Source: Campylobacter estrildidarum (GTDB lineage Bacteria; Campylobacterota; Campylobacteria; Campylobacterales; Campylobacteraceae). Taken from it: a DNA stretch of 64,000 nt. The translations under genes were made by a program, and so were the position numbers. Of the stretch, positions 549 to 18,662 are shown in pieces (position 1 is the stretch's first letter; each line of letters starts with the position of its first letter). The DNA is taken from contig NZ_NXLZ01000008.1 of NCBI RefSeq assembly GCF_005406205.1, positions 1-64,000 on the forward strand. The letters run 5' to 3'. Below the pieces are notes generated by a model. That model was not told the DNA's origin. It did no database searches and was given only the letters and a program-made list of their open reading frames with translations.

Positions 549-813
549 TTAACTCCTTAATCTTATTTATTTGTATCTCACACTGTTTATACTTGTAAAA
601 AAGTAAAGAATAAGCATTTATGATATCAAGTTCATTTTTGACTTGTGGTTTTTCAAGGGGGCTTATGGTTAGTAGCTCGTTTGGAATTTTCACTTTTTGA
701 ATTTGTATTTTGCTTATTACTTGTTGCGTTGTCGTCCCACAACCTATCAATGACATCGTTAAAAAGCTTAATAAGATTATTTTCATTGCTTTTATAGATA
801 TATTCTTTAACAT
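538..813 (-). CDS. Rz1-like outer-membrane spanin lipoprotein
   Basis: A 91-residue protein with a signal sequence and lipobox (MSLIGC, Cys about residue 25) followed by a short polar region. It overlaps the upstream Rz-like gene by 161 bases in a different frame. A lipoprotein overlapping an N-terminally anchored coiled-coil protein is the typical architecture of Rz/Rz1 two-component spanins, which fuse inner and outer membranes in the last step of host lysis. A GAAAGGATAAATT Shine-Dalgarno region supports the start at 813 over the internal Met at 786. The call rests on architecture, not on sequence similarity. Confidence 0.75.
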   Translation of the reverse strand: MLKNISIKAMKIILLSFLTMSLIGCGTTTQQVISKIQIQKVKIPNELLTISPLEKPQVKNELDIINAYSLLFYKYKQCEIQINKIKELNED

Positions 814-1072
814 AATTTATCCTTTCTTTGATCTGATTTTTTTGAATATAGCTTTCATTTAAGGCTTTGAGTTCTAGATTGTGTCTTTGTGTAAGTTCTT
901 GAATCTTTTCTTGATTGTTTTTATTAATCTCTAAAGCCAAAGCTAGATCGTTTTGGCTTTTTTCTAATCTTGATTTCGTGTTATCAAGTCTTAGATATAA
1001 ATAACCAGATAAAATAGCCATTAAAGCTAAAACAAAATAAAGTTTTACATTGCCAAATAAAAAGTTAAACAT
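653..1072 (-). CDS. Rz-like inner-membrane spanin
   Basis: A 139-residue protein from the chosen ATG at 1072: one N-terminal membrane segment (about residues 10-28) followed by a long, highly charged predicted coiled coil (RLDNTKSRLEKSQNDLALAL and beyond). This is the topology of i-spanins. The frame stays open up to 1141, but the extra 23 codons run through the strong hairpin at 1102-1139 and place a polar stretch before the membrane anchor. I therefore prefer 1072, although no strong Shine-Dalgarno precedes it. It pairs with the nested Rz1 gene and follows the endolysin gene. Confidence 0.7.
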   Translation of the reverse strand: MFNFLFGNVKLYFVLALMAILSGYLYLRLDNTKSRLEKSQNDLALALEINKNNQEKIQELTQRHNLELKALNESYIQKNQIKERINYVKEYIYKSNENNLIKLFNDVIDRLWDDNATSNKQNTNSKSENSKRATNHKPP

Positions 1073-1093
1073 TTGATATTTAAGAAGTTTAAA

Positions 1094-1099
1094 TATAAT
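1094..1099 (+). promoter_or_regulatory. -10 box (TATAAT) for a plus-strand transcript
   Basis: A perfect TATAAT preceded by an AT-rich tract lies 3 bases before the first arm of the 1102-1139 hairpin cluster. Campylobacter housekeeping promoters are defined mainly by this -10 and upstream T-richness, without a conserved -35. It would start an RNA near 1105 that runs over the 20-codon hydrophobic frame at 1168. Confidence 0.4.
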
Positions 1100-1101
1100 T
1101 T

Positions 1102-1163
1102 CAAAGGGTAGATGCCAAAGGTGGCTACCCTTTGGCATCAATCACGCCCAGAAAGGCGGTGAT
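1102..1163 (+). promoter_or_regulatory. Mutually exclusive hairpins and a sequestered Shine-Dalgarno
   Basis: CAAAGGGTAG (1102-1111) is perfectly complementary to CTACCCTTTG (1125-1134). GATGCCAAAGG (1111-1121) is perfectly complementary to CCTTTGGCATC (1129-1139). The two stems share bases, so only one can form. The next hairpin pairs ATCACGCC (1141-1148) with GGCGGTGAT (1155-1163) through a bulge, hiding AAAGGCGGTGAT (1152-1163), which differs by one base from the perfect 16S rRNA complement AAAGGAGGTGAT. CCCTTTGGC at 1266-1274 can also pair with the 5' GCCAAAGG, giving a possible 5'-3' lock. Confidence 0.5.
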
Positions 1164-1167
1164 TTAT

Positions 1168-1230
1168 GTGTCAAACAAAATTATAGTTATAATTATACTA
1201 CTTTGTATAATTATAGTCAAGTGTTCTTAA
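1168..1230 (+). CDS. Candidate 20-residue hydrophobic peptide (type I toxin-like)
   Basis: A GTG-started frame, VSNKIIVIIILLCIIIVKCS, ends in TAA at 1228-1230. It is almost entirely hydrophobic, like the very small membrane toxins of type I systems (Ibs and TisB classes are the closest in character; I claim no homology). The near-consensus Shine-Dalgarno AAAGGCGGTGAT ends 4 bases before the GTG and is locked in a hairpin. An overlapping ATG (1166) would give only a 6-codon frame. Three minus-strand TATAAT boxes lie inside it and could drive an antisense RNA over the leader. The frame may be a by-product of these repeated TATAATTATA boxes. Confidence 0.35.
   Translation: MSNKIIVIIILLCIIIVKCS
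1180..1215 (-). promoter_or_regulatory. Three minus-strand -10 boxes inside the small hydrophobic frame
   Basis: The minus strand reads TATAAT at 1215-1210, 1197-1192 and 1185-1180. The last is placed to start an RNA near 1173 that would be antisense to the sequestered Shine-Dalgarno and the hairpins at 1102-1163. Plus-strand TATAAT also occurs at 1188 and 1206, so the tract is repetitive and transcript direction cannot be settled by eye. Confidence 0.35.
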
Positions 1231-1239
1231 CATTTGATT

Positions 1240-1254
1240 CCCCTTTAAAAGGGG
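1240..1254. other. GC-rich hairpin, possible 3' end or attenuator
   Basis: CCCCTTTAAAAGGGG forms a compact stem of four GC pairs plus AT pairs in the gap between the endolysin gene and the spanin genes. No long T run follows on either strand, so it may be a processing or stability element instead of a strong terminator. It would be the 3' hairpin of the plus-strand RNA predicted from 1105. Confidence 0.35.
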
Positions 1255-1303
1255 AGCTATAATTTCCCTTTGGCTTTAAACTTCTTCACTCCTTTCTAAA
1301 AAA

Positions 1304-1693
1304 TTAAGAATAAGTCCATCTGGCTTTTTTGCCTCTGGTGTCTAAATGGACAAAACCACCAAAAGGATTCTTAGGGTTATGTTTTATAGCAATTCCAAAA
1401 GGTTTATCACCGTATTTTTCTAAAACGTATTGATGCACTTCTTCAGTTTTAACCCCTTTAACGACAAAATCAGCCGCACTGCCGATGGTGTGTTGTGAGC
1501 TTTTAGCTCCACCTACTTCTGCATTGTGCTCTTTGCAACGATAACCGCTATTTATGGTAATAGGTACGTTGTAATGTTCTCTGATCTCACAAAGCACATC
1601 GACTAACTCATCGCTTGGAACGTCTTTTGGTAATTCACACTTACCGCACTTGCATTTAAATTCGTCTTCTTTAAAATATTTGTTTTCTTTCAT
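1304..1693 (-). CDS. Endolysin, peptidase M15A (D,D-carboxypeptidase/endopeptidase type)
   Basis: A 129-residue peptidase of the M15_3 family. Visible features are the SGYRCKEHN segment, then SSQHTIGSAADF with the metal-binding His and Asp, and a C-terminal GGFVHLDTRG with the second metal His. The N-terminal CKCGKCELP is a short cysteine cluster. It cleaves peptide cross-links of peptidoglycan; with the holin and spanins in the same operon it is the phage lysis enzyme. There is no signal peptide, so release would depend on the holin. The length matches stand-alone phage M15 endolysins. Confidence 0.88.
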   Translation of the reverse strand: MKENKYFKEDEFKCKCGKCELPKDVPSDELVDVLCEIREHYNVPITINSGYRCKEHNAEVGGAKSSQHTIGSAADFVVKGVKTEEVHQYVLEKYGDKPFGIAIKHNPKNPFGGFVHLDTRGKKARWTYS

Positions 1694-1702
1694 TTTAGCT
1701 CC

Positions 1703-3025
1703 TTAAGAATTTAATATAGTCCAATCTGAATAATCTTTTACTTTTCTTGTAATATCTCCTCCTGTTGTAATATCAATCGCATAAATCATTGTTTTTGGAA
1801 TATCATCATTTTTTTTAGCAGTTTTTTCTAAACTAAATAAAGGCTCTAGCATATTTGCACAATATGCTTTTAGGATTAATTTTGGTGTCCAGTCTCTACT
1901 TGTTACGTTTCCATAAGGACGAACTCCAAAACCTTTTATATTCGCAGGTAATGGCTTGTCAAAACTTAAGGTGTATTCATAATTTCCATTATTTGACAAG
2001 GCACCACTTAATAAAGTTTTACTATCTCCACTAAGAATGTTGTATGTGTAAGAACTACTATAAATTGAAATTGTGCTTGATATAGTCGCTGTATAATCAA
2101 CGCCATCAATTTCAAAAATAGCCTTTCCACTTGGACTAGTTCCTATGTTAGAACTTTTAGCAAAAATAGCTTTTTCATTAAAATCTATTAAGCCAAAATT
2201 GCTTATTGTACATGCATTGTAAGAAACTGATATATTATTTCTACTGACTATTATGGAAAGTTTATTAATAAAATTTTCTTTGCCCAGATCCACTTTCTCC
2301 CATTGTGTTGTTTTACTTATGTAAATAGAATTTGGAATTGTAGATCTATCTATCCAGATAAAACCTTTAGGAAATCCTGTCATATTACCTTGTAGGGTTG
2401 GTGGTGTATTTGCTACATTACAAAGTATAGCATTTTTTTCCAAAGCGCTTAAAAATTGAGCAAGGCAATTATTTTCTATAGTTGAAATTCTAATCATATT
2501 TTCTTCGATTAAAGGTTTTGCTACTTCTTCTAAGCTTTGTGTTAATCTTTCATCACTTATTTTATCACCATCTTCTCCTTTTTCACCCTTTAAAGAAGCT
2601 AAAAATTCATCTTCGCTTTTGCCTGAATTTTGCTCATTATTAAGCCAAATTTCATAAGCACTTTTACCATTTTCTCCCTTTAGATTTTCTAATTGCTCAG
2701 GGGTAAAATCTTCATAAGTAAAGGGATCACCTTTGAATTTTTCTTTATTTTCTGAAAATATTTTTAAAATTTTTTCTTCTAACATTTCTTTATCAATGTT
2801 TAAATTTATATCAAGTTCTTTTAATAATTTTTCTAACTTTCCTTTTAGTTCATTTTCTTTAATAAAAGCATTTTTTGACAATACCTCATCGATGGCTTTT
2901 TTTATACTTTCTTCGCTCGGTGTTGCACCCTTGTCTAAAAGTTCTAATATTTTATATTTGATGATTTCAAAGTCTTTATTGATAGCTTTGGAATTTTCAA
3001 CAATAATTTTTAAGCTTTCATCCAT
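1703..3025 (-). CDS. Tail fibre-like protein with collagen-like linker
   Basis: A 440-residue protein. The N-terminal ~110 residues are charged and probably helical. A short collagen-like stretch follows (GENGKSAYEIWLNNEQNSG, then GEKGEDGDK), a motif common in phage fibre proteins. The C-terminal half is Ser/Thr/Asn-rich and probably beta-structured, as in receptor-binding regions. It sits between the DUF1353 gene and the endolysin at the end of the structural operon, where adhesion modules are common. The receptor cannot be read from sequence. Confidence 0.6.
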   Translation of the reverse strand: MDESLKIIVENSKAINKDFEIIKYKILELLDKGATPSEESIKKAIDEVLSKNAFIKENELKGKLEKLLKELDINLNIDKEMLEEKILKIFSENKEKFKGDPFTYEDFTPEQLENLKGENGKSAYEIWLNNEQNSGKSEDEFLASLKGEKGEDGDKISDERLTQSLEEVAKPLIEENMIRISTIENNCLAQFLSALEKNAILCNVANTPPTLQGNMTGFPKGFIWIDRSTIPNSIYISKTTQWEKVDLGKENFINKLSIIVSRNNISVSYNACTISNFGLIDFNEKAIFAKSSNIGTSPSGKAIFEIDGVDYTATISSTISIYSSSYTYNILSGDSKTLLSGALSNNGNYEYTLSFDKPLPANIKGFGVRPYGNVTSRDWTPKLILKAYCANMLEPLFSLEKTAKKNDDIPKTMIYAIDITTGGDITRKVKDYSDWTILNS

Positions 3026-3028
3026 CTT

Positions 3029-3400
3029 TTAACCCCTTATAAAGCATTTTAAAAAATGAAAAGTATTGCAAGCATGGTAAAACACAAAACATTTAATCTT
3101 AGGACATTTAAGCTCTTGCATTGCCTCTTTTAAAGCAAGATCGGCTAACTTGTAATCTTTTCTCGAATTGGCTTTTTCGCATAAATAATCGTGTATCACA
3201 CAAGCACTAAAATACTCACTCCTGTATGGTGGAAAAAAACTCCAAAATATACGAGGGATACTCGCTCCGTCTGTTATAAATCCTTTTGGCACTATGCCGT
3301 TAAAGCTTGGCAATATAAAAGTATAATCACTAACCACTTCGAATTTATCTTTATCAAAGGGTTTTACACAAACCCTTTTTAATTCATTTTTTATTGTCAT
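3029..3400 (-). CDS. DUF1353 family phage protein
   Basis: A 123-residue protein with the DUF1353 signature: an FITDGASIPRIFW segment near residue 40 and a conserved HDYLCEKA around residue 70. The family is widespread in tailed phages close to lysis and tail-fibre genes; its biochemical role is not established to my knowledge. It overlaps the end of the holin-like gene by 17 bases, which argues for coupled translation. Confidence 0.75.
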   Translation of the reverse strand: MTIKNELKRVCVKPFDKDKFEVVSDYTFILPSFNGIVPKGFITDGASIPRIFWSFFPPYRSEYFSACVIHDYLCEKANSRKDYKLADLALKEAMQELKCPKIKCFVFYHACNTFHFLKCFIRG

Positions 3401-3851
3401 TGTTATCCTCTATCTTTAGATATTTACTTGCTATTTTTTTAAATTTTTCAATAAAAATATTATAAAAATCTACTTCTTTTATATCTTCTTTTTTTCTAAT
3501 ACTTTGTATGCTGACCAAGAATGCAAAGAATTCTCCAATGGTTAAAAAGCTAAAAGAATAATCAACTAAATAATAAAAAACACTGATTTGTTTAGCCATA
3601 ACCGCCAAAATAAAAGGGATAAAAAATGCTAAAGTTTTGCTTAAAATATCTGTTGTCAAAAAAGCTCTAAGATTTTTATTTAAAGCCAAGATTTTAATAA
3701 TAGCAGCAATACCACTAAATGTAAAAACTATAAGCAAAACTATAACTTGTGCGATTTCAATTTTAAGATAAGCTAGAAATTGATAGATTAAAGCTAAAAT
3801 TACACTTCCAAAAATTAAAACAAAATTAGCATTATTTTCTAAATTATTCAT
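3384..3851 (-). CDS. Probable holin (multi-span membrane protein)
   Basis: A 155-residue protein with about four hydrophobic segments (near residues 10-28, 34-52, 70-88 and 95-113) and a charged C-terminal tail rich in Lys and Asp. The pattern, including the LTIGEFFAFLVSIQSIRKK segment, resembles the phage holin_4 (toxin secretion/lysis) family. Holins form the inner-membrane lesion that triggers lysis and lets the endolysin reach the wall. It overlaps the upstream DUF4376 gene by 4 bases (ATGA type). Fibre and DUF1353 genes separate it from the endolysin, so the lysis genes are not one contiguous cassette. Confidence 0.65.
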   Translation of the reverse strand: MNNLENNANFVLIFGSVILALIYQFLAYLKIEIAQVIVLLIVFTFSGIAAIIKILALNKNLRAFLTTDILSKTLAFFIPFILAVMAKQISVFYYLVDYSFSFLTIGEFFAFLVSIQSIRKKEDIKEVDFYNIFIEKFKKIASKYLKIEDNNDNKK

Positions 3852-4462
3852 TCTTTATTCTCCCATTGTATTTTTTTCAACTCTTCTGAAGAACTCGCAT
3901 TTTTAACTTCATTTCTAAGAGTATCATTTTTAAAAATAACCTCTTCAGTATATTTTGCAATGCTGATACCAAATTCTAAAAATTCACTTGCACTAAAGAT
4001 AATAATTTGATTATTCTTATCAATCCAATTAATATTCTCCAGCGTTTTTTGATTAAGTTGCGCCAACACAATTTCGCTTACTTTTCCGCTTATATTGATT
4101 TTGGCATCTGTATCAATTTGAAAAATTGTATTTTTATAAGGCATAAAGAGAAGTTTTTGCTCTTTAATGGTTTTTAATTCTTTTAATTTTAAATCTTTTA
4201 ACTGCTCTAAACTCTTCTCTTCTACTTTATAACTTATATTAAATTCATTTTTTAATTCATCATAATCCTGAACTAAATTTAAATTTTGTGTGTTTTTATC
4301 ATACTCTGGTATCTTATGTTCAATTACTTTTGCTAAACCTAATTTTCTTAAGTCTTCATTGTCGAGATTTTCTAAAATCCAGAAATTCTCGCCACCATTT
4401 TCTAATTCTTGACAAAAAATTTTTTCATAATAAAATTTTTTTTCCTTAATTAAATAAAACAT
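3848..4462 (-). CDS. DUF4376-like tail-associated protein
   Basis: A 204-residue protein. The middle contains LKDLKLKELKTIKEQKLLF, followed by a small beta-rich segment (TIFQIDTDAKINISG), which matches the DUF4376 domain found in many phage tail-fibre-region proteins. The N-terminal 90 residues look like a beta-sandwich adaptor. It is probably a tail-fibre assembly or baseplate-edge protein by location. It overlaps the holin-like gene by 4 bases. Confidence 0.6.
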   Translation of the reverse strand: MFYLIKEKKFYYEKIFCQELENGGENFWILENLDNEDLRKLGLAKVIEHKIPEYDKNTQNLNLVQDYDELKNEFNISYKVEEKSLEQLKDLKLKELKTIKEQKLLFMPYKNTIFQIDTDAKINISGKVSEIVLAQLNQKTLENINWIDKNNQIIIFSASEFLEFGISIAKYTEEVIFKNDTLRNEVKNASSSEELKKIQWENKE

Positions 4463-4478
4463 TTATTCTCCTTTATAT

Positions 4479-4943
4479 TTAAATCGAAAGATAAGCTAAG
4501 GCTTTTTCGACTGGAATTTCCTGCATAAAAACATCCTCATCATTATTTTTATACTTAAAAATCACTATTCTTAAAGATCCAAAATTATCAAAATTATTAT
4601 TTTTTTCTATATCTAATTCCCCACTAATAAATTTATTAGTATTATCTTTATCGCAAATTTTATTTAAAAACCATCCCTCTTTAATTGTGTCTTTATTTGT
4701 AGCATAAAGCCATAATTCAAATTTGTATTCATATGTTTCACTTATATGGGTATTAGGTTCAATACCATATGCGGTATGTTTTCCTATAGCAATTTCATAT
4801 TTTATTTTTTTAGCCACTTTTAACATTTGACTAGCATAAGAATAATCAGTCTGAGAAAATATATAAGATGTATCGCTAAACTCTAAATTTATAGGATTGT
4901 CATATACAATACTTTCACCTCCTAAAAGCATAGTATTAGCCAT
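4479..4943 (-). CDS. Phage structural protein of unknown function, probably tail tip
   Basis: A 154-residue soluble protein without recognised motifs. It is rich in aromatic residues and predicted beta strands (YEYKFELWLYATN). It lies 1 base upstream of the DUF4376 group and directly downstream of the large fibre gene, so a role in the fibre or baseplate is likely from position only. Confidence 0.6.
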   Translation of the reverse strand: MANTMLLGGESIVYDNPINLEFSDTSYIFSQTDYSYASQMLKVAKKIKYEIAIGKHTAYGIEPNTHISETYEYKFELWLYATNKDTIKEGWFLNKICDKDNTNKFISGELDIEKNNNFDNFGSLRIVIFKYKNNDEDVFMQEIPVEKALAYLSI

Positions 4944-4944
4944 T

Positions 4945-6240
4945 TTAACTCCTTACAAGTCTTATGTGAGAATTTGAAACTACAAAATAAGCAAAAATTT
5001 CAGTTCCACTAAAATTACTTTGCGTTGCCCTAAATTTAAAAGGTGCATTAAAAGCGGTTATATTATTAGCGTTATTTATCGTTATCGTTCCACTTTTTCC
5101 TATCAAAGAGCCCCAATTAGATACACTTATCGCAGATTTTGCACTCAAGGTTATATTAAAATGGACACCTTTTGTAAAATCAATTGCAGCAGCTGAAGTA
5201 ACTAAACCCCCTTGATGATCTGCATATTTTTTAGTCGCGGCCTGATTGTCAGCTTTTGGGTCATTAATTACAATCTCTTTTTTAAATGTTTTTGCCCCAT
5301 CGATTGTCTCATCACCTTCTAAACCTACCTTATTTTTAATTTCATCATTTATTGAATTGATTAAATCATCTATATATTTCTTATTTACTGCATCTGTAGG
5401 TTTTATGGGTTCTTTTTCTATACTCGGTGGCTCACTATAATTTGTTTCTGGCTTGTTTGTTTTTTGCCAAATATAAGCCTTTATTGCAAGATCTGTTTTT
5501 AAAACCCAAGTATTTGTATCAGTTACTCTCGCATAAACCAAATACTCTTTTGTATCGCTTTTATACCATACATCACCCAAATTTGGTTCTTGCGGTTTCT
5601 CTTCGGTGCTAAATTTAGCACTAAATGTACTTGGAATTTGCGGATTAGCCCAAAAATTACCGCTTGTAGTTTTTACATAGATTAAATATTCTTTTGTATT
5701 ATTTCTATACCAAATATCGCCTAATTCCGTCTCATCATCTTTTGGTTGTTCGCTTTGATTAAATTTAGCTTTAAAAGTTGCAGGTAAAGTAGGATCTATC
5801 CAAGCTTTTCCTTCCACGACTTGTTCTGCTACGTAAAATTGTCCCTCGTGAAAATCTTCGTCGTTTGTATTTTTAAACCAAATTTCACCTGTGTTTGAAG
5901 TTTTAGGCGTTTCTTTTCCAAAGTATGTAATATCTGGATTTTCTTTATAGATATAGATTTCGGCTGTATCTTTTTTAAACCAAATTTCACCCAAATTTGG
6001 TTTATAAGGTTCCAAATCACTTGAATAATCAAACGGATTAACCACTCGCTCGTAAAGTTTTCTAAGTTCTTCTATTTTTTGCTCTACTAAATCTTTATAT
6101 TCTTGTATAGTTGCATCTTTTTTCTCATTAATGAAAACTTCTAGTTCATCCATAATTCCATTTAATTTAAGTCTGATTGCTTGAATGTCTTGTGCTATTG
6201 GACTTAAAAATTTATATTCTTCAACGCTAGTTAATTGCAT
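4945..6240 (-). CDS. Tail fibre protein with repeated GxIWY modules
   Basis: A 431-residue fibre protein. An N-terminal coiled-coil stretch (~40 residues) is followed by four modules, each opening with a variant of LGDIWYKSDTKEYLVYV or GEIWFKN. A linker follows with the phage tail-repeat signatures DAVNKKYID and NQAATKKYAD, and then a beta-rich tip. The KKYxD motifs are typical of lambda-like side-fibre repeats. It is probably the host-recognition fibre. Module repetition could allow length change by recombination. Confidence 0.75.
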   Translation of the reverse strand: MQLTSVEEYKFLSPIAQDIQAIRLKLNGIMDELEVFINEKKDATIQEYKDLVEQKIEELRKLYERVVNPFDYSSDLEPYKPNLGEIWFKKDTAEIYIYKENPDITYFGKETPKTSNTGEIWFKNTNDEDFHEGQFYVAEQVVEGKAWIDPTLPATFKAKFNQSEQPKDDETELGDIWYRNNTKEYLIYVKTTSGNFWANPQIPSTFSAKFSTEEKPQEPNLGDVWYKSDTKEYLVYARVTDTNTWVLKTDLAIKAYIWQKTNKPETNYSEPPSIEKEPIKPTDAVNKKYIDDLINSINDEIKNKVGLEGDETIDGAKTFKKEIVINDPKADNQAATKKYADHQGGLVTSAAAIDFTKGVHFNITLSAKSAISVSNWGSLIGKSGTITINNANNITAFNAPFKFRATQSNFSGTEIFAYFVVSNSHIRLVRS

Positions 6241-6249
6241 ATTTTCTCC

Positions 6250-6735
6250 TTAACTTCTTTTCAATTTAATTAGATTGTTTTCAAACAAATGTCTCTCTAG
6301 CGATATAACATGGGCTATATTTTGACAAATCGCTATATAATCTGCCCCACTCTCATTATCTTGTATAGTTTGTAATGCTGAAAATTTTTGAGAATTTATT
6401 CTTTCGATGCATTCATTAGTATATTTTTCAAACTCTAATTTTGTTGTATTTAGCGTCTTTTGTTTTATCTTAAAACTTTCAAGTTCTATTTCAAAAATTG
6501 TGTCAATTCTTTCTTTTTTAATATCTTCAAAAAATAAATTAGACATATTTTGAATATTTTCACTAGAGCTTTGTATAAAAGCAATAAAGCCATTTAATTC
6601 TTCTATTAAGGCGTTTAATTCTTTTCCAAAAGGTGGTAAAGCTGCGACAAATCGATCGGCTTCAGCATCAAAATTTACCGGTTCTTGCATATTTGGAGCT
6701 TTTGGCAAATCGCTTATATGTATGGTTATTTTCAT
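6250..6735 (-). CDS. Coiled-coil phage protein of unknown function
   Basis: A 161-residue protein, largely helical, with long charged coiled-coil-like stretches (FEIELESFKIKQKTLNTTK). It lies between the head-tail adaptor and the fibre gene and overlaps the adaptor gene by 4 bases. No family is recognised. A fibre-base or trimerisation role is a guess from position and composition. Confidence 0.6.
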   Translation of the reverse strand: MKITIHISDLPKAPNMQEPVNFDAEADRFVAALPPFGKELNALIEELNGFIAFIQSSSENIQNMSNLFFEDIKKERIDTIFEIELESFKIKQKTLNTTKLEFEKYTNECIERINSQKFSALQTIQDNESGADYIAICQNIAHVISLERHLFENNLIKLKRS

Positions 6736-7046
6736 TGTAATCTCGCCTTAATTTTTAGAAATTGTTTATTTTGATCCATATCTTGTATACTTAAAATTTC
6801 ATATTTTCTATCCCTAAAAACTATAAAATAAGAAAAGTCAAGCTCTAAAAATCTAAGTTCAAATTCATGTGTAGCTATTTGACTTACTCCATCGTCTAAA
6901 TTTTTGCTTTCTACACTTAGATTTTTACAACTTGCATAAACTTCTTTAAAAAGTAATTCTTGGGTAAAATCAAGTTCATTAAATTCATTTTTGCTTTGCT
7001 CTTTTTTATAAATTTTAATTCGATGCTTAAAGGTATTTGCTTTCAT
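6732..7046 (-). CDS. Head-tail joining/adaptor protein
   Basis: A 104-residue protein resembling the Phage_H_T_join (SPP1 gp16/HK97 gp7-like) family: an N-terminal FKHRIKIYKKEQ strand, a central EVYASCKNLS segment and a C-terminal short strand pair (KYEILSIQDMD). Such proteins close the head-tail connector ring. It shares its start base with the end of the gp6-like connector gene, as expected for the pair. Confidence 0.7.
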   Translation of the reverse strand: MKANTFKHRIKIYKKEQSKNEFNELDFTQELLFKEVYASCKNLSVESKNLDDGVSQIATHEFELRFLELDFSYFIVFRDRKYEILSIQDMDQNKQFLKIKARLQ

Positions 7047-7483
7047 TAAAAAAATGCCACCTTGTATCTACTTACTAGTGCGTTTGAAATTTTTGGCATA
7101 CTCGCACCATCAAATGCCGTCAAAACATAATTTTTAAGCCAAAGCTTTATATCTTGTGGTAATTCTTCATAGCCTAATTTTACATCCATCTTTCCACTTC
7201 CTATACAATAAAGAATGTTTAAATTGGTTCTAAATTCTGCATTAAAATTGGCATTAATTAAGGTATCAAAAGGTGCCAAAATTACTCTTTCATTGTAAAA
7301 CTCAATCCTATAAATATTAGAGATTAAAATACGATTTGTTCTTGTTTGAAATTCACTTATTCCAGCTTTTAGAAATTGTTTTAAATTTTCATCAAAAACA
7401 TCACTATCTAATCTTAAAAAAGTTCTTAACTCTTCAATACTTATAAGATCTTTTTCACACTCTTCTAATACCTTAATAATCAT
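7046..7483 (-). CDS. Head-tail connector, gp6-like
   Basis: A 145-residue helical protein. The opening SIEELRTFLRLDSD, followed by about 30 residues later ISEFQTRTNRIL, is the usual signature of gp6-like DNA-packaging/connector proteins that form a ring below the portal. It lies downstream of the capsid and the repeat protein and upstream of the adaptor, the normal local order. It overlaps the upstream gene by 4 bases. Confidence 0.72.
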   Translation of the reverse strand: MIIKVLEECEKDLISIEELRTFLRLDSDVFDENLKQFLKAGISEFQTRTNRILISNIYRIEFYNERVILAPFDTLINANFNAEFRTNLNILYCIGSGKMDVKLGYEELPQDIKLWLKNYVLTAFDGASMPKISNALVSRYKVAFF

Positions 7484-7839
7484 TTTTTACCTTTATTGCC
7501 TTTTTTATTATTTTTGGCGTCTTTGTCTTCTGAATTTTCTTGTTTTTCTTGGATTTCTTCTTCATTTGTTTGATCTAGTTCTTCTTCTCGTTCTTCTTGG
7601 ATTTCTTCTTCATTTGTTTGATCTAGTTCTTCTTCTCGTTCTTCTTGGATTTCTTCTTCATTTGTTTGATCTAGATTTTCATTTTCTTGTTCTTGAATTT
7701 CTTTATCATCACTTGAAACAAAATCAACAATGCCTTTTTCTTTCAGTCTTAAGGCTTCACTAAGATTTAACAAAGCCTCATCGCCTTTTTTATAAAACAC
7801 GTTACCACTAAGGCAAGTTAAAAAAATAACTTTTTTCAT
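7480..7839 (-). CDS. Acidic repeat-containing phage head-region protein
   Basis: A 119-residue protein. Residues 1-45 form a small domain (KGDEALLNLSEALRLKEKGI) like those seen in short phage proteins placed between capsid and connector genes. The rest is a strongly acidic tail made of 16-residue repeats (LDQTNEEEIQEEREEE) and a final lysine-rich end (KNNKKGNKGKK). The role is unknown; a capsid-decoration, internal or scaffold-like function is possible. The tail is coded by a 48-bp tandem repeat that could change length. Confidence 0.7.
   Translation of the reverse strand: MKKVIFLTCLSGNVFYKKGDEALLNLSEALRLKEKGIVDFVSSDDKEIQEQENENLDQTNEEEIQEEREEELDQTNEEEIQEEREEELDQTNEEEIQEKQENSEDKDAKNNKKGNKGKK
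7549..7674. repeat. 48-bp tandem repeat, about 2.6 copies
   Basis: The unit beginning TTCATTTGTTTGATCTAG occurs at 7561-7608 and again at 7609-7656 without mismatch, with partial copies at 7549-7560 and 7657-7674. The unit length is a multiple of three (16 codons), so copy-number change keeps the reading frame of the acidic repeat protein. Confidence 0.9.
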
Positions 7840-7849
7840 TTTTTATCCT

Positions 7850-9013
7850 TTAAGCTGGACAAGAAATTTTACAAACTGCCAAATCATCCATAAGTTTTGC
7901 ATCTAGTCTTAGACGAACTTTAATTCCTATAAGATCATTTTGTGCGTAAAGCTCATTTAATCTTGTAAAACTCATGTTTGAACGATCCCAGATTTCATAA
8001 AAGCTAAAATCTCCAAAGAAAGCAGGAATTTTATTAGCTCCAAATCCATCTAAAGCGGAACAATACACTACTTTTTTACCTAGTATAGTGTCATATCCTC
8101 CAGCACTCAAAGCAGGTAACCATAAAGGACGCCCATCGTTATCGGTAAGCTTATAAACCCCTTTCATAAAATCATCACTTACAAGCCAACAAGCATTTTT
8201 TCTATAAGCACTATCTAGATTAAAAAAAGCATCGATTAAATCATTACTTGTAATTCCTGAGTTGGAGACTAATTTAAATTCTTTTTTAGCATTGATCAAA
8301 CCAGTTGGTTTTTTGTCTCCATCTCCTCTTATAAAGGCGTCTTCTTCGGCCTTAGATATCTTTTCGGCAGCTTTTCTAACTATAAAACTTTCAAGGTTTA
8401 AAATATTATCACTTAGAAGTTCTTCGCTAATCTTAATAATCCCTCCGAGTTTATAAGCTCCTATACTTAACTTTGTAAAGTTTGCTGATACTTCGTTAAA
8501 AGTTGCCATTTCATCAATCCAAGAAAAATCACCCATTCCATCAAATACAGGTATAGTTTGATTGCTTGAGCTTTTTTGTATGGTTGCTATTTTTCTAATC
8601 ACACTTAAATCTGTAAGTTTTTCTCTGATCTTGCTTTGTAAAATAGTAGGAACTAAAACCCCACCTTTTTCTGCGGTAGTCTCATTAAGAACATCTCTTT
8701 GTAAATTTTGATCTATAAGACCATTTCTTAGATAATTTACAAAAGAACGCATATATTCTTCTTCATTTGCTTGTCTTTGATCTTGTGGATTTTCTGTTAA
8801 AATTGGACTAATGACTTGATTTAAATACTTTTCTCTTTCAGCTTCAGCCTCCAATCTTGAAAGCTCGTTTCTTTTTTCTTCAAAATCCTTAACTAAAGAT
8901 TCATATTTGACATTTTCTTCAGCACTAAAGCTTCTTTGCTCATTTTTGGCTAAATTAGATAAAGCCACCATTTGTTCATGAATGTTTCCAATTTCTTGTC
9001 TTAATTTTTGCAT
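7850..9013 (-). CDS. Major capsid protein, HK97 fold
   Basis: A 387-residue protein of the phage_capsid (HK97 gp5) family. Residues 1-70 are a charged coiled coil of the delta-domain type, expected to be removed by the prohead protease. The rest carries family-like segments such as GGVLVPTILQSKI, ISEELLSDNILNLESFI and a C-terminal IGIKVRLRLDAKL. It forms the icosahedral shell. It follows the protease gene by 11 bases, the normal pairing. What is unusual is that the pair lies downstream of the tape measure gene instead of the portal. Confidence 0.92.
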   Translation of the reverse strand: MQKLRQEIGNIHEQMVALSNLAKNEQRSFSAEENVKYESLVKDFEEKRNELSRLEAEAEREKYLNQVISPILTENPQDQRQANEEEYMRSFVNYLRNGLIDQNLQRDVLNETTAEKGGVLVPTILQSKIREKLTDLSVIRKIATIQKSSSNQTIPVFDGMGDFSWIDEMATFNEVSANFTKLSIGAYKLGGIIKISEELLSDNILNLESFIVRKAAEKISKAEEDAFIRGDGDKKPTGLINAKKEFKLVSNSGITSNDLIDAFFNLDSAYRKNACWLVSDDFMKGVYKLTDNDGRPLWLPALSAGGYDTILGKKVVYCSALDGFGANKIPAFFGDFSFYEIWDRSNMSFTRLNELYAQNDLIGIKVRLRLDAKLMDDLAVCKISCPA

Positions 9014-9024
9014 TTTTTTTCTCC

Positions 9025-9579
9025 TTAAAAAATTGATTTTCTTAAAAGTTCTATTTCTCTTTCTCTTGCTTCTGTTAAAGCTTTAATTTTTCTTTTTTCG
9101 TTATCCTCTTCAAAACGTTTTTTAGCGTTTTTGTCCGCACCTTTCCAAACTGCACTAAGCTCAAAAATATCAAATTCGGTTACAACAACTCTTTTGGGTG
9201 TGCTTTGTTTATCGATATTGTGTTTTAAAATGCGATATCCAATCGATACATCGCTTAAGATTCCATCTTGATATTTTTTAAAGATTTCTTGGCTTTTTTC
9301 ATCTTTAGCAAATACACAATCACAAACAAGCTCATCATTTTCTATCCTTATATTTTCAATTCTAGCAATAGCATTATCTACGCTAGGATTATGATCTTTA
9401 AAAAGAGTTTTTAGTCCTTCAAATTTTGCCCCTTTGACGTCTAATTCTTCTATGTAATCTCCTAATTCCCAATCAAAACGCTTACAAGCGTTAGAATTAG
9501 AAACCATAACAAAACTTAAAGTGTTATTTTCTTCGCTTATGTTTCTTAATCTTGCAGCATCAGCTCTAATAAAATTCAT
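9025..9579 (-). CDS. Prohead maturation protease
   Basis: A 184-residue protease of the HK97 prohead protease (U35/S78) type. Visible landmarks are LFKDHNPSVDNAIARIENI with the catalytic His, DGILSDVSIGYRI with the expected catalytic Ser, and FELSAVWKGADKNA near the end. It cleaves the capsid delta domain and itself during maturation. It is the first gene of the displaced head block and is preceded by a copy of the 37-base promoter-like element and a start-proximal hairpin. Confidence 0.9.
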   Translation of the reverse strand: MNFIRADAARLRNISEENNTLSFVMVSNSNACKRFDWELGDYIEELDVKGAKFEGLKTLFKDHNPSVDNAIARIENIRIENDELVCDCVFAKDEKSQEIFKKYQDGILSDVSIGYRILKHNIDKQSTPKRVVVTEFDIFELSAVWKGADKNAKKRFEEDNEKRKIKALTEAREREIELLRKSIF

Positions 9580-9609
9580 TCTAAAATCCTTATTTTTATA
9601 GATTTTAGA
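9580..9609 (-). promoter_or_regulatory. Start-proximal hairpin before the prohead protease gene
   Basis: TCTAAAATC (9580-9588) and GATTTTAGA (9601-9609) are perfect 9-base complements that directly abut the ATG at 9579, with a 12-base AT-rich loop. The Shine-Dalgarno AAGGA sits at the loop-stem border, so pairing could limit ribosome access. A comparable stem lies at the same place in front of the other element-linked genes. Confidence 0.5.
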
Positions 9610-9610
9610 A

Positions 9611-9647
9611 ATTTTAAAAAAAGTTTGAGGCGTTAAAGTGCGTGTTA
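9611..9647 (-). promoter_or_regulatory. 37-base late element, copy D (prohead protease)
   Basis: Read on the minus strand it starts TAACACGCACTTTAACGCC and ends in a T run plus TAAAAT. It is identical to copy B over all 37 bases. It lies 31 bases before the protease start codon and 23 bases after the end of the preceding gene. The ending resembles a Campylobacter -10 box; the upstream CACGC...AACGCCTCAAAC part has no housekeeping counterpart and may bind a phage activator. Confidence 0.75.
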
Positions 9648-9670
9648 GAAGTTTTTTTGAGTTTTTTTGA

Positions 9671-10540
9671 TTAAATTAATCCTTGAACATTTAATTTATA
9701 TTGAATATAATCTTCAACTTCTAAAGGTGCGGAGTAATCCTTTAAAATGCCAAATGTAGTAAGTTTTTTAAAGCCCAATTCACTTTCATCACCTATAAAT
9801 AAAGCTTTAACGTTATAGATTTCAGATATTAGCTCATCATAATAATCAAAATCCTTTTTTTGTATAGCTACAACAAATTCTAAATATTTTGCTTTCTTTC
9901 CTGAAACAACGTTAGTGATACCCCATTCGTTCGTTGAAGTTTTTGAGTAGTTTAAATAAGTGCTGCTTGCTGGATAAATTGTAATCCCTGCAAATTCTTT
10001 TTTTCCTATTAAAATATGCCCTACATCGCACCCTGTTTTTGCAGGTTTAAAACTAATCAAAATTTCACTATTGATCGGATAAGGTAAAAAAACAAAATCT
10101 TCTTTATTGACCTTAAATTTTCCAAAAAAATATTCCCACCATGTTTTTGTTTTTTTATAATACATTGATTTTTCATAGATTATTTTTTTGTCTATTGTTT
10201 GAATTTTTATTTTTGAAACATTTAAATTTAAAAAAGCTAAGGTGTCAAAAACGCCATCTATTTTCAATTGAATACTCCAAGCTTTATCACATTTGGTTTG
10301 TGTATTTACCTCATCATCAAAAAAAGCATTTTCATTTACAGGAGCAAATTTTACCCATTTATCAAAATAAACATCTGGTTCTTCGTGTGTATCTTCATCA
10401 CTTGCACTTACCCAAATAAAGCCTTTAAATTGAACTTTTTCATCACTCTTATACGTTTTTTCTTTAACCCATAAAGGCGTTTCATCTTTAGTTGCTGAAT
10501 TTTGCAAGACTTCAAATTCTAAGGGTTTTACTATAGTCAT
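9671..10540 (-). CDS. Tail protein with N-terminal carbohydrate-binding-like module
   Basis: A 289-residue protein directly downstream (11 bases) of the tape measure gene. Residues 20-70 (WVKEKTYKSDEKVQFKGFIW, with a final WVKF) follow the aromatic spacing of small CBM5/12-like chitin-binding folds often fused to phage tail proteins. The remainder is beta-rich with no recognised family. By position it corresponds to a distal tail or tail-tip protein. I see no clear homologue. Confidence 0.6.
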   Translation of the reverse strand: MTIVKPLEFEVLQNSATKDETPLWVKEKTYKSDEKVQFKGFIWVSASDEDTHEEPDVYFDKWVKFAPVNENAFFDDEVNTQTKCDKAWSIQLKIDGVFDTLAFLNLNVSKIKIQTIDKKIIYEKSMYYKKTKTWWEYFFGKFKVNKEDFVFLPYPINSEILISFKPAKTGCDVGHILIGKKEFAGITIYPASSTYLNYSKTSTNEWGITNVVSGKKAKYLEFVVAIQKKDFDYYDELISEIYNVKALFIGDESELGFKKLTTFGILKDYSAPLEVEDYIQYKLNVQGLI

Positions 10541-17965: not shown

Positions 17966-17971
17966 ATTTTT

Positions 17972-17995
17972 CTCCTTATAAATAAATATAAGGAG
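17972..17995 (-). promoter_or_regulatory. Hairpin that sequesters the tail tube Shine-Dalgarno
   Basis: On the minus strand CTCCTTATA (17995-17987) pairs perfectly over 9 bases with TATAAGGAG (17980-17972) across a 6-base loop. The right arm contains the whole AAGGAG ribosome-binding site, 6 bases before the ATG. In this form the site is fully paired, which predicts translational control of the most abundant tail protein. Confidence 0.6.
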
Positions 17996-18032
17996 ATTTT
18001 ATAAAAAGTTTGAGGCGTTAAAGTGCGTGTTA
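17996..18032 (-). promoter_or_regulatory. 37-base late element, copy C (tail tube)
   Basis: Same 37 bases as copies B and D, except that the T run ends TATAAAAT instead of TTTAAAAT. This makes an even better Campylobacter -10. It lies 30 bases before the tail tube start and directly borders the RBS hairpin. Confidence 0.75.
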
Positions 18033-18057: not shown

Positions 18058-18156
18058 CTACTCATTTTTTATCCTTTTCTCAAGTTTATTAATGCGTATC
18101 TCACACACTCCTACCCAAGCAGCCAAAATGATAATAAGCAAAAAATCGAAATTCAT
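18058..18156 (-). CDS. Small single-span membrane peptide, 32 residues
   Basis: ATG at 18156, stop TAG at 18058-18060. The peptide starts MNFDFLLIIILAAWVGVCEI, and its end is basic (about 12 residues). A good AAAAGGA Shine-Dalgarno lies 5 bases upstream. It follows the 26-residue peptide gene in the same direction and precedes the tail tube. One membrane span with an N-terminal hydrophobic and C-terminal charged part resembles small phage membrane peptides; the function is unknown. Confidence 0.5.
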   Translation of the reverse strand: MNFDFLLIIILAAWVGVCEIRINKLEKRIKNE

Positions 18157-18173
18157 TTTTAATCCTTTTATGG

Positions 18174-18179
18174 TATAAT
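18174..18179 (+). promoter_or_regulatory. -10 box (TATAAT) for the antisense RNA
   Basis: A plus-strand TATAAT in the context TATGGTATAATAG, placed to start an RNA at about 18186, immediately before the CCCCC hairpin. It points against the direction of the neighbouring late genes and towards the 26-residue peptide gene. Confidence 0.45.
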
Positions 18180-18185
18180 AGTTTC

Positions 18186-18296
18186 AAAGATGAAAACCCC
18201 CTCGCACTGGGGGTTACTTTAGCTTGTTAAAAGCTTTAGTAAAGCTACAATATAAAATATTGTTTGTAAGATTAGTGCGAGTAATCTTAGCTTTTT
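18186..18296 (+). ncRNA. Predicted ~110-nt antisense RNA over the 26-residue peptide gene
   Basis: The predicted RNA starts downstream of the TATAAT at 18174-18179. It begins with the stem AACCCCC/GGGGGTT (18195-18201 with 18209-18215) and ends with the 8-bp stem TAAGATTA/TAATCTTA (18267-18274 with 18282-18289) followed by GCTTTTT (18290-18296), a rho-independent terminator shape. It is fully complementary to the peptide reading frame on the opposite strand. The two hairpin loops are complementary to each other over 8 bases (18201-18208 with 18274-18281). Existence of the RNA is inference from promoter and terminator features. Confidence 0.45.
18195..18215. terminator. GC-rich hairpin after the 26-residue peptide gene
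   Basis: AACCCCC and GGGGGTT flank the 7-base loop TCGCACT. On the minus strand it follows the peptide stop codon by 3 bases and is followed by TTTTCATC, so it can end or attenuate the leftward transcript. On the plus strand it would be the 5' hairpin of the antisense RNA. Confidence 0.55.
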
Positions 18297-18299
18297 CAT
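18219..18299 (-). CDS. 26-residue hydrophobic peptide, candidate type I toxin
   Basis: The frame starts MKKLRLLALILQ and continues as a single hydrophobic helix ending LLKLLTS; stop TAA at 18219-18221. The Shine-Dalgarno AAAGGAG with 6-base spacing is excellent, so translation is likely. A short basic N-terminus plus one membrane helix is the common shape of type I toxins (AapA, Fst, TxpA classes), though no homology is claimed. An internal hairpin (18268-18288) and the downstream hairpin have complementary loops, and an antisense RNA is predicted opposite. It could alternatively be a phage membrane peptide of the early lysis region. Confidence 0.5.
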   Translation of the reverse strand: MKKLRLLALILQTIFYIVALLKLLTS

Positions 18300-18336
18300 C
18301 TTTTACTCCTTTCTTTTTGATTTGTTTTTAGTTATC

Positions 18337-18409
18337 TACTAAAAACTTAATATAATTATATAGTATTTTACTAAAAAAGTCAAGTATATTTTATGTTATT
18401 TACTAAAAA
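18337..18409. promoter_or_regulatory. Three phased operator boxes TACTAAAAA
   Basis: TACTAAAAA occurs at 18337-18345, 18369-18377 and 18401-18409, that is, with exactly 32 bp between starts each time. This is close to three helical turns and places all boxes on one face of the DNA. Divergent TATAAT-like -10 boxes lie between them (plus strand 18351-18356, minus strand 18360-18355). The likely binder is the Cro-like product of the gene at 18450, controlling itself and the leftward peptide/tail transcript. Confidence 0.65.
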
Positions 18410-18449
18410 TATGTTATTATTTTTATATAAATAACATAAAAGGTATTAA

Positions 18450-18662
18450 ATGACAAGATTAGAATTTGATAAAAAAATCAAACAATTAGGTTTAACAAGA
18501 AAAACATTTGCAGATATAGCAAAAGTAAGCTATAGTGGAATTTCTACAAATTGGAAGGATGATAAAGAAATTCCCGCTTGGGTTGAACCTTTTTTATATT
18601 ACTACGAAAAAAGCTTAGTTTTAGATGAAATTTCAAAATCTATAAAACCTTTTATAAAATAA
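18450..18662 (+). CDS. Cro-like helix-turn-helix regulator
   Basis: A 70-residue protein with an HTH pattern at residues 12-34 (GLTRKTFADIAKVSYSGIST), then NWKDDKEIPAWVEPFLYYYE, typical of small Cro/XRE-like phage regulators in epsilonproteobacteria. The gene is alone on the plus strand between the tail terminator and the tail tube genes, preceded by AAAAGG and by three phased TACTAAAAA boxes. It probably represses the divergent promoters. A regulator inside the structural operon is unusual. Confidence 0.75.
   Translation: MTRLEFDKKIKQLGLTRKTFADIAKVSYSGISTNWKDDKEIPAWVEPFLYYYEKSLVLDEISKSIKPFIK

What the first reader, a model, noticed from the sequence alone, without database searches (positions are those of the whole stretch)
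18174..18360. Candidate type I toxin-antitoxin locus with self-complementary (kissing) loops inside the phage tail operon
Seen: a 26-codon hydrophobic peptide frame on the minus strand with an AAAGGAG site; a plus-strand TATAAT at 18174-18179; a plus-strand terminator-like stem plus T5 at 18267-18296. A ~110-nt RNA would therefore be antisense to the whole frame. Two hairpins on the same RNA (stems 18195-18201/18209-18215 and 18267-18274/18282-18289) have loops CTCGCACT and AGTGCGAG that are complementary over 8 bases, so each RNA can fold on itself and both RNAs can meet loop to loop. Known: AapA/IsoA-type systems in Helicobacter and Campylobacter use small hydrophobic toxins, overlapping antisense RNA and loop-loop contacts. 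Inference: this is a new family member or a new family that would stabilise the prophage. The alternative is an attenuator in front of a phage membrane peptide.
Basis: partly seen in the sequence, partly recalled or inferred. Interest (0 to 1): 0.86.

Follow-up and report, generated by a model that had tools for sequence, protein, structure and literature searches.

The report
Prophage toxin gene locked by RNA
A tiny membrane-peptide gene in a Campylobacter prophage carries a conserved RNA lock over its start codon and an opposing antisense promoter, and the same cassette recurs with different peptides across Campylobacter and Helicobacter, so it looks like a widespread family of phage-borne, RNA-controlled toxins that has not yet been tested at the bench.

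Summary
The minus-strand 26-codon membrane peptide (18219-18299) recurs in about 24 loci of Campylobacteraceae and Helicobacteraceae under purifying selection (pN/pS 0.39). The plus-strand TATAAT is an extended -10 (TGnTATAAT), kept just beyond the helix in 23 of 24 loci. A blind scan for short ORF + start-codon helix + antisense -10 finds this locus alone in the window, none in 3.1 Mb of shuffled DNA, and 51 modules in related DNA, carrying about 47 different membrane peptides, sometimes in tandem arrays, all with a second small membrane ORF. The kissing loops are supported only in a Campylobacter subgroup. It works like H. pylori AapA/IsoA but is not a member by the features tested: no toxin similarity, antisense promoter outside the ORF, start-codon rather than SD lock, extra ORF2. 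Toxicity and the antisense transcript are untested. Verdict: new variant of a known kind.

The parts
18355..18383 (-). toxin promoter: TTGACT, 17 nt, TATAAT; predicted transcript start about 18348
   Evidence: 11 of 12 consensus matches; TTGAC-N17-TATAAT type promoter in most homologues
18324..18346 (-). 5' stem-loop of the toxin mRNA (GTTTTTAGT/ACTAAAAAC)
   Evidence: a hairpin of unrelated sequence stands at the same place in most homologues
18306..18312 (-). Shine-Dalgarno AAAGGAG
   Evidence: GAAAGGA kept in the six-sequence set
18219..18299 (-). 26-aa membrane peptide, putative toxin MKKLRLLALILQTIFYIVALLKLLTS
   Evidence: pN/pS 0.39
18293..18303 (-). 5' strand of the start-codon helix (AAAGATGAAAA)
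18186..18196 (-). 3' strand of the start-codon helix (TTTTCATCTTT), overlapping the terminator U-tract
18267..18289 (.). hairpin inside the toxin codons, 7-nt loop complementary to the terminator loop
18195..18215 (.). C5/G5 hairpin, intrinsic-terminator-like on the minus strand, 7-nt loop
   Evidence: loop pairing
18171..18179 (+). extended -10 (TGGTATAAT) of the antisense RNA
   Evidence: an extended -10 stands at this place in 23 of 24 homologues
18186..18303 (+). predicted antisense RNA (antitoxin), start about 18186; 3' end not determined
   Evidence: inferred from the -10; fold z -5.2
18058..18156 (-). ORF2, 32-aa membrane peptide with charged tail, constant partner of the cassette
18450..18662 (+). 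divergent 70-aa protein of PHROG 8898 (unknown function); its relatives in sister modules also match PHROG 4779, transcriptional regulator, so probably an HTH regulator
18389..18441 (.). 21-nt imperfect inverted repeat between regulator and toxin promoter, possible operator
   Evidence: 86% complementary; role inferred

Best explanation
This is a prophage-borne type I toxin-antitoxin cassette. A strong promoter makes a minus-strand mRNA for a 26-aa membrane peptide. In the full-length mRNA the start codon is locked in a helix with the 3' end, so it is not translated; 3' trimming (inferred from AapA and hok) would open it. A convergent extended -10 promoter just beyond the helix makes an antisense RNA over the whole toxin message, which would pair with opened mRNA and lead to its decay by RNase III (inferred). 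In a Campylobacter subgroup, pairing between the toxin-codon loop and the terminator loop further closes the fold. If the antisense is shorter-lived than the mRNA (inferred), loss of the prophage or of antisense transcription would release the peptide, which attacks the inner membrane: prophage addiction. A second membrane peptide (ORF2), always next to it and class-matched, belongs to the unit; my best guess is a co-toxin or membrane partner. A neighbouring HTH-type protein probably controls the toxin promoter (inferred). Shown here: the sequence features, their conservation and covariation, and predicted folding. Not shown: transcripts, toxicity, antitoxin activity.
For: The peptide is conserved in about 24 loci of Campylobacteraceae and Helicobacteraceae, some in named Helicobacter prophages, pN/pS 0.39. 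Start-codon helix: 22 of 24 loci, which were chosen by peptide or DNA similarity and not by the helix, have an 8-14 nt perfect run; own-pair mean 10.0 nt against 6.9 for cross-pairs, maximum of 10,000 permutations 8.5; counting only bases upstream of ATG, 4.3 against 1.5. Pair types change on both sides (position -4: A-U 19, U-A 13, C-G 11, G-C 1; position -2: A-U 32, C-G 17). Removing the 3' strand raises predicted start-codon openness from 0.09 to 0.68 on average over 21 loci. Antisense extended -10 in 23 of 24. Blind scan: 0 in 3.1 Mb shuffled, 51 modules in related DNA, all with a small hydrophobic peptide (filter applied; nearly all hits are such peptides without any filter) and ORF2. L046 has frameshifts in both toxin and ORF2, as a costly gene may decay.
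Against: No transcript data for either strand and no toxicity test. The 3' end of the mRNA is uncertain: U-tracts after the hairpin are weak in Helicobacter members, so mRNAs may read through into ORF2. The antisense 3' end is unclear. A -10 alone is weak evidence of a promoter in AT-rich DNA; its conservation is what counts here. L048 lacks the helix at the start codon (at best shifted to codons 2-5).
Confidence: 0.78

Rival explanations
1. [quoted passage not shown]
For: Same phylum, 5' stem-loop, SD, 25-30 codon membrane peptide, 5'-3' end pairing that blocks translation, antisense RNA. The AapA authors report that the mRNA folding is conserved at various loci in related species (PMC6733600); from memory, the abstract of the 2017 AapA1 paper says similar systems occur in many Helicobacter and Campylobacter genomes, so some of these loci may already be in their lists.
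Against: No similarity to AapA1. AapA-type loci were found only in one Helicobacter genus group, g47, where the new family has no strong match. IsoA -10 inside the ORF at one fixed place in AapA loci, and downstream of the ORF in the new family. Helix over the start codon with the SD mostly free. ORF2 in 23 of 24 new loci against 0 of 16 AapA loci.
Confidence: 0.1
2. An attenuator or leader peptide that controls ORF2 or downstream phage genes.
For: A terminator-like hairpin sits between the peptide and ORF2, and ORF2 always follows.
Against: The conserved helix closes over the start codon of the peptide itself; the peptide is a conserved membrane sequence under purifying selection rather than a run of regulatory codons; a conserved convergent promoter has no part in attenuation.
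Confidence: 0.04
3. A small membrane exclusion protein or antirepressor-control element of the phage immunity region, with antisense RNA control of the c4/sar type, not a toxin.
For: Lies beside regulator genes, and beside genes annotated as putative antirepressors in BK070157 and BK070158.
Against: The cassette also stands away from antirepressors (window, BK070152 array); varied peptides on one RNA chassis with a start-codon lock fit toxins better.
Confidence: 0.07

Closest known systems
AapA/IsoA (Helicobacter pylori)
   Same: Small membrane peptide, 5' stem-loop, full-length mRNA locked by 5'-3' pairing, antisense RNA opposite the toxin gene
   Different: No toxin sequence similarity; antisense promoter downstream of the ORF, not inside it; helix covers the start codon rather than the SD; class-matched ORF2; prophage-borne with a regulator gene
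Fst/RNAII (par of plasmid pAD1)
   Same: Convergent promoters flanking a small membrane toxin on a mobile element (own knowledge)
   Different: No Pfam match of any new peptide to Fst or Ldr models; lock by a start-codon helix with the 3' end; ORF2
yonT-yoyJ/SR6 (prophage SPbeta of B. subtilis)
   Same: Prophage type I toxin followed by a second small toxin ORF, with antisense RNA (abstract of PMC5848175)
   Different: yonT toxin is 58 aa and SR6 overlaps the 3' end of yonT and yoyJ; no sequence relation was tested
Hok/Sok
   Same: 5'-3' end pairing keeps the full-length toxin mRNA silent until 3' processing (as described in PMC6733600)
   Different: No overlapping mok-type ORF noted; different peptide; antisense predicted to cover the whole ORF

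Membership tests
type I toxin-antitoxin (general) | small hydrophobic peptide under coding selection | tested here: met
type I toxin-antitoxin (general) | antisense RNA overlapping the toxin mRNA | tested here: inconclusive
   extended -10 conserved in 23 of 24; transcript not observed
type I toxin-antitoxin (general) | peptide is toxic and the antisense RNA suppresses it | not testable with these tools
   needs expression assays
AapA/IsoA | toxin similar to AapA | tested here: not met
   (probability 0.8%); AapA1 search finds loci in only one genus group
AapA/IsoA | translation blocked by 5'-3' long-distance pairing in the full-length mRNA | tested here: met
   covariation and predicted folding; the place differs (start codon, not SD)
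AapA/IsoA | antisense promoter inside the toxin ORF | tested here: not met
   all 16 AapA control loci have TATAAT at the same codons inside the ORF; the new family has it downstream of the ORF in 23 of 24
AapA/IsoA | 3' trimming activates the mRNA; loop contact with the antisense RNA; RNase III decay | not testable with these tools
   needs RNA biochemistry

The most novel reading that the evidence does not exclude
A modular three-component system: one RNA chassis (start-codon lock plus convergent antisense promoter) carries different membrane peptides, each together with a class-matched second membrane peptide (ORF2) that is an obligate partner, either co-toxin or protein immunity, often with an HTH regulator and in tandem arrays of four or more. 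That would be a type I system with an added protein partner.
Probability: 0.3. Interest if true: 0.8.

Novelty: new variant of a known kind. Interest (0 to 1): 0.64.

Why it matters
Campylobacter and Helicobacter prophages would carry a widespread RNA-locked toxin cassette that standard annotation misses (no significant Pfam or NCBIfam match for the peptides tested and no Rfam match for the RNA). The split between one RNA chassis and many peptides makes it testable how RNA locks evolve apart from the toxins they hold, and the constant ORF2 raises a new question about type I systems. Such modules may stabilise prophages in this phylum.

Tried and rejected
Rfam search: nothing. Pfam, NCBIfam and PDB searches of the peptides: nothing significant. 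The search for related loci refuses queries this short. Plasmid collection: no relatives of three peptides. MAFFT on the DNA does not align the helix strands, so covariation was measured with anchored strands and permutation, and no covariance model was built. Kissing loops as a family-wide feature: rejected. The 51 modules were found by the helix itself, so their pairing percentages are biased; the 24 loci were chosen by peptide or DNA similarity and are the fair set. Literature: the 2017 AapA1 paper is not held, so overlap with its list could not be checked; searches for Campylobacter type I systems gave nothing on this family.

Full report
Observation. The window belongs to Campylobacteraceae: a genome of the same family group (G531) carries the same locus sequence as the named record of Campylobacter gastrosuis. 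Portal, terminase and tail-completion genes lie close by, so the prophage setting is right. The most important feature was not in the finding: AAAGATGAAAA around the start codon (18293-18303) is fully complementary to TTTTCATCTTT after the terminator hairpin (18186-18196). The full mRNA folds with this helix closed, z -5.0; the antisense strand folds as the mirror image, z -5.2.

Homologues. DNA similarity found the locus in one same-genus genome and in Helicobacter prophages BK070157, BK070151 and BK070152, with a weaker match in BK070158 whose peptide differs. A peptide profile found it in 7 of 153 Campylobacteraceae genomes (strong matches) and 11 of 121 Helicobacteraceae genomes, some with several copies. 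Consensus M-K-K-L-R-L-x-A-L-I-L-Q-I-x-F-Y-x-x-A-I-x-K-L-L-x-S; pN/pS 0.39 over pairs.

The lock. In 22 of 24 loci the start-codon region pairs with that locus's own 3' UTR over 8-14 nt. Own pairs average 10.0 nt; swapping 3' UTRs between loci gives 6.9, and no permutation out of 10,000 exceeds 8.5. Counting only bases upstream of ATG, 4.3 against 1.5. Examples: AAAGATGAAAA/TTTTCATCTTT (window), CACAATGA/TCATTGTG (BK070157), AGATAAGATGAA/TTCATCTTATCT (BK070151), CGATACAATGA/TCATTGTATCG (L056). Over 51 modules position -4 shows A-U, U-A, C-G and G-C pairs and position -2 shows A-U and C-G (these modules were chosen by the helix, so only the diversity of pairs counts). Predicted openness of the start codon goes from 0.09 to 0.68 when the 3' strand is cut away, while the SD is mostly open in both states (0.69 and 0.60), so this is a start-codon lock. 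In the window the U-tract after the terminator hairpin doubles as the 3' strand (inference on function).

The antisense promoter. An extended -10 (TGnTATAAT or a close variant) stands on the opposite strand 5-11 nt beyond the helix, and is present in 23 of 24 loci; the exception is L046, whose toxin is frameshifted. In 16 control AapA loci the same scan finds the IsoA -10 at the same codons inside the ORF, as published (PMC6733600), and nothing consistent downstream.

Kissing loops. The 8-base loop complement of the window is kept in L062, with 7 in L066; L061 and L083 carry TAGCGG/CCGCTA, and L082 ATCGCG/CGCGAT, changed on both sides, while swapped combinations of these three types give only 2-4. 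Shuffle probabilities are 0.0008, 0.026 and 0.025 for the three types. Helicobacter members, L037 and L039 lack it. So it is an accessory contact of a Campylobacter subgroup, probably within one RNA, since the two hairpins flank the closing helix.

A larger family. A scan for short SD-led ORF + helix over the start codon + antisense extended -10 recovers the known loci plus modules with quite different peptides. It finds none in 3.13 Mb of shuffled sequence and none in 173 kb of control loci. A motif search of 153 genomes and a sample of 40 loci added 18 loci with modules, among them one in the window's own genome (G000 contig C22, about 4932-5009: MQRLDLLIKLAVLIYLICKIIQLWI). In all there are 51 modules with about 47 different peptides, all with ORF2, and toxin types tend to travel with matching ORF2 types. 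ORF2 follows 23 of 24 homologues of the window locus and 0 of 16 AapA genes. BK070152 carries four modules in a row, each followed by a 73-81-aa protein (the three tested match PHROG 4779, transcriptional regulator), and contig L059 carries seven; the window's own regulator type sits beside a different toxin in BK070152, so regulator and toxin are exchanged.

Interpretation. [quoted passage not shown] It is not filed as AapA/IsoA because toxin similarity and antisense-promoter position were tested and not met. Whether earlier structure-based searches by the AapA authors already list some of these loci could not be checked, which is why novelty is held at a new variant of a known kind. Toxicity, transcripts and the role of ORF2 are open.

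Noticed in passing
L059 (IMGVR_UViG_2881310535_000001) 632-10219; L138 (BK070152) 1412-3475: Arrays of seven and four different toxin-ORF2 modules, several followed by an HTH-type gene, in DNA of Helicobacter sp. 13S00477-4.
   Followed up: partly
G000:C22:4932-5009 (L177 1533-1610, minus strand): A second module of another toxin type (MQRLDLLIKLAVLIYLICKIIQLWI) in the same genome as the window.
   Followed up: partly
L049, L050, L054 near the middle of each locus: Degenerate relatives in a 2.5-Mb Helicobacteraceae genus where the region after the peptide holds a run of 11-13 G of differing length, possibly phase-variable.
   Followed up: no
L046 (G483:C1:1744844-1744919): Frameshifts in both the toxin ORF and ORF2 while the start-codon pairing sequence remains: a decayed copy.
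   Followed up: partly
window 17971-17996: 10-bp inverted repeat TCTCCTTATA/TATAAGGAGA whose one arm holds the SD of the 324-aa phage gene 16991-17965: possible translational control of that gene.
   Followed up: no
L137 (G532:C18:27700-31700), upstream of ORF2: Another peptide (MEAFILVVDLMSAIIKLITLYLLIKQIKQ) with GGCAAAGC/GCTTTGCC pairing and TGATATAAT nearby, not reported by the scan.
   Followed up: partly
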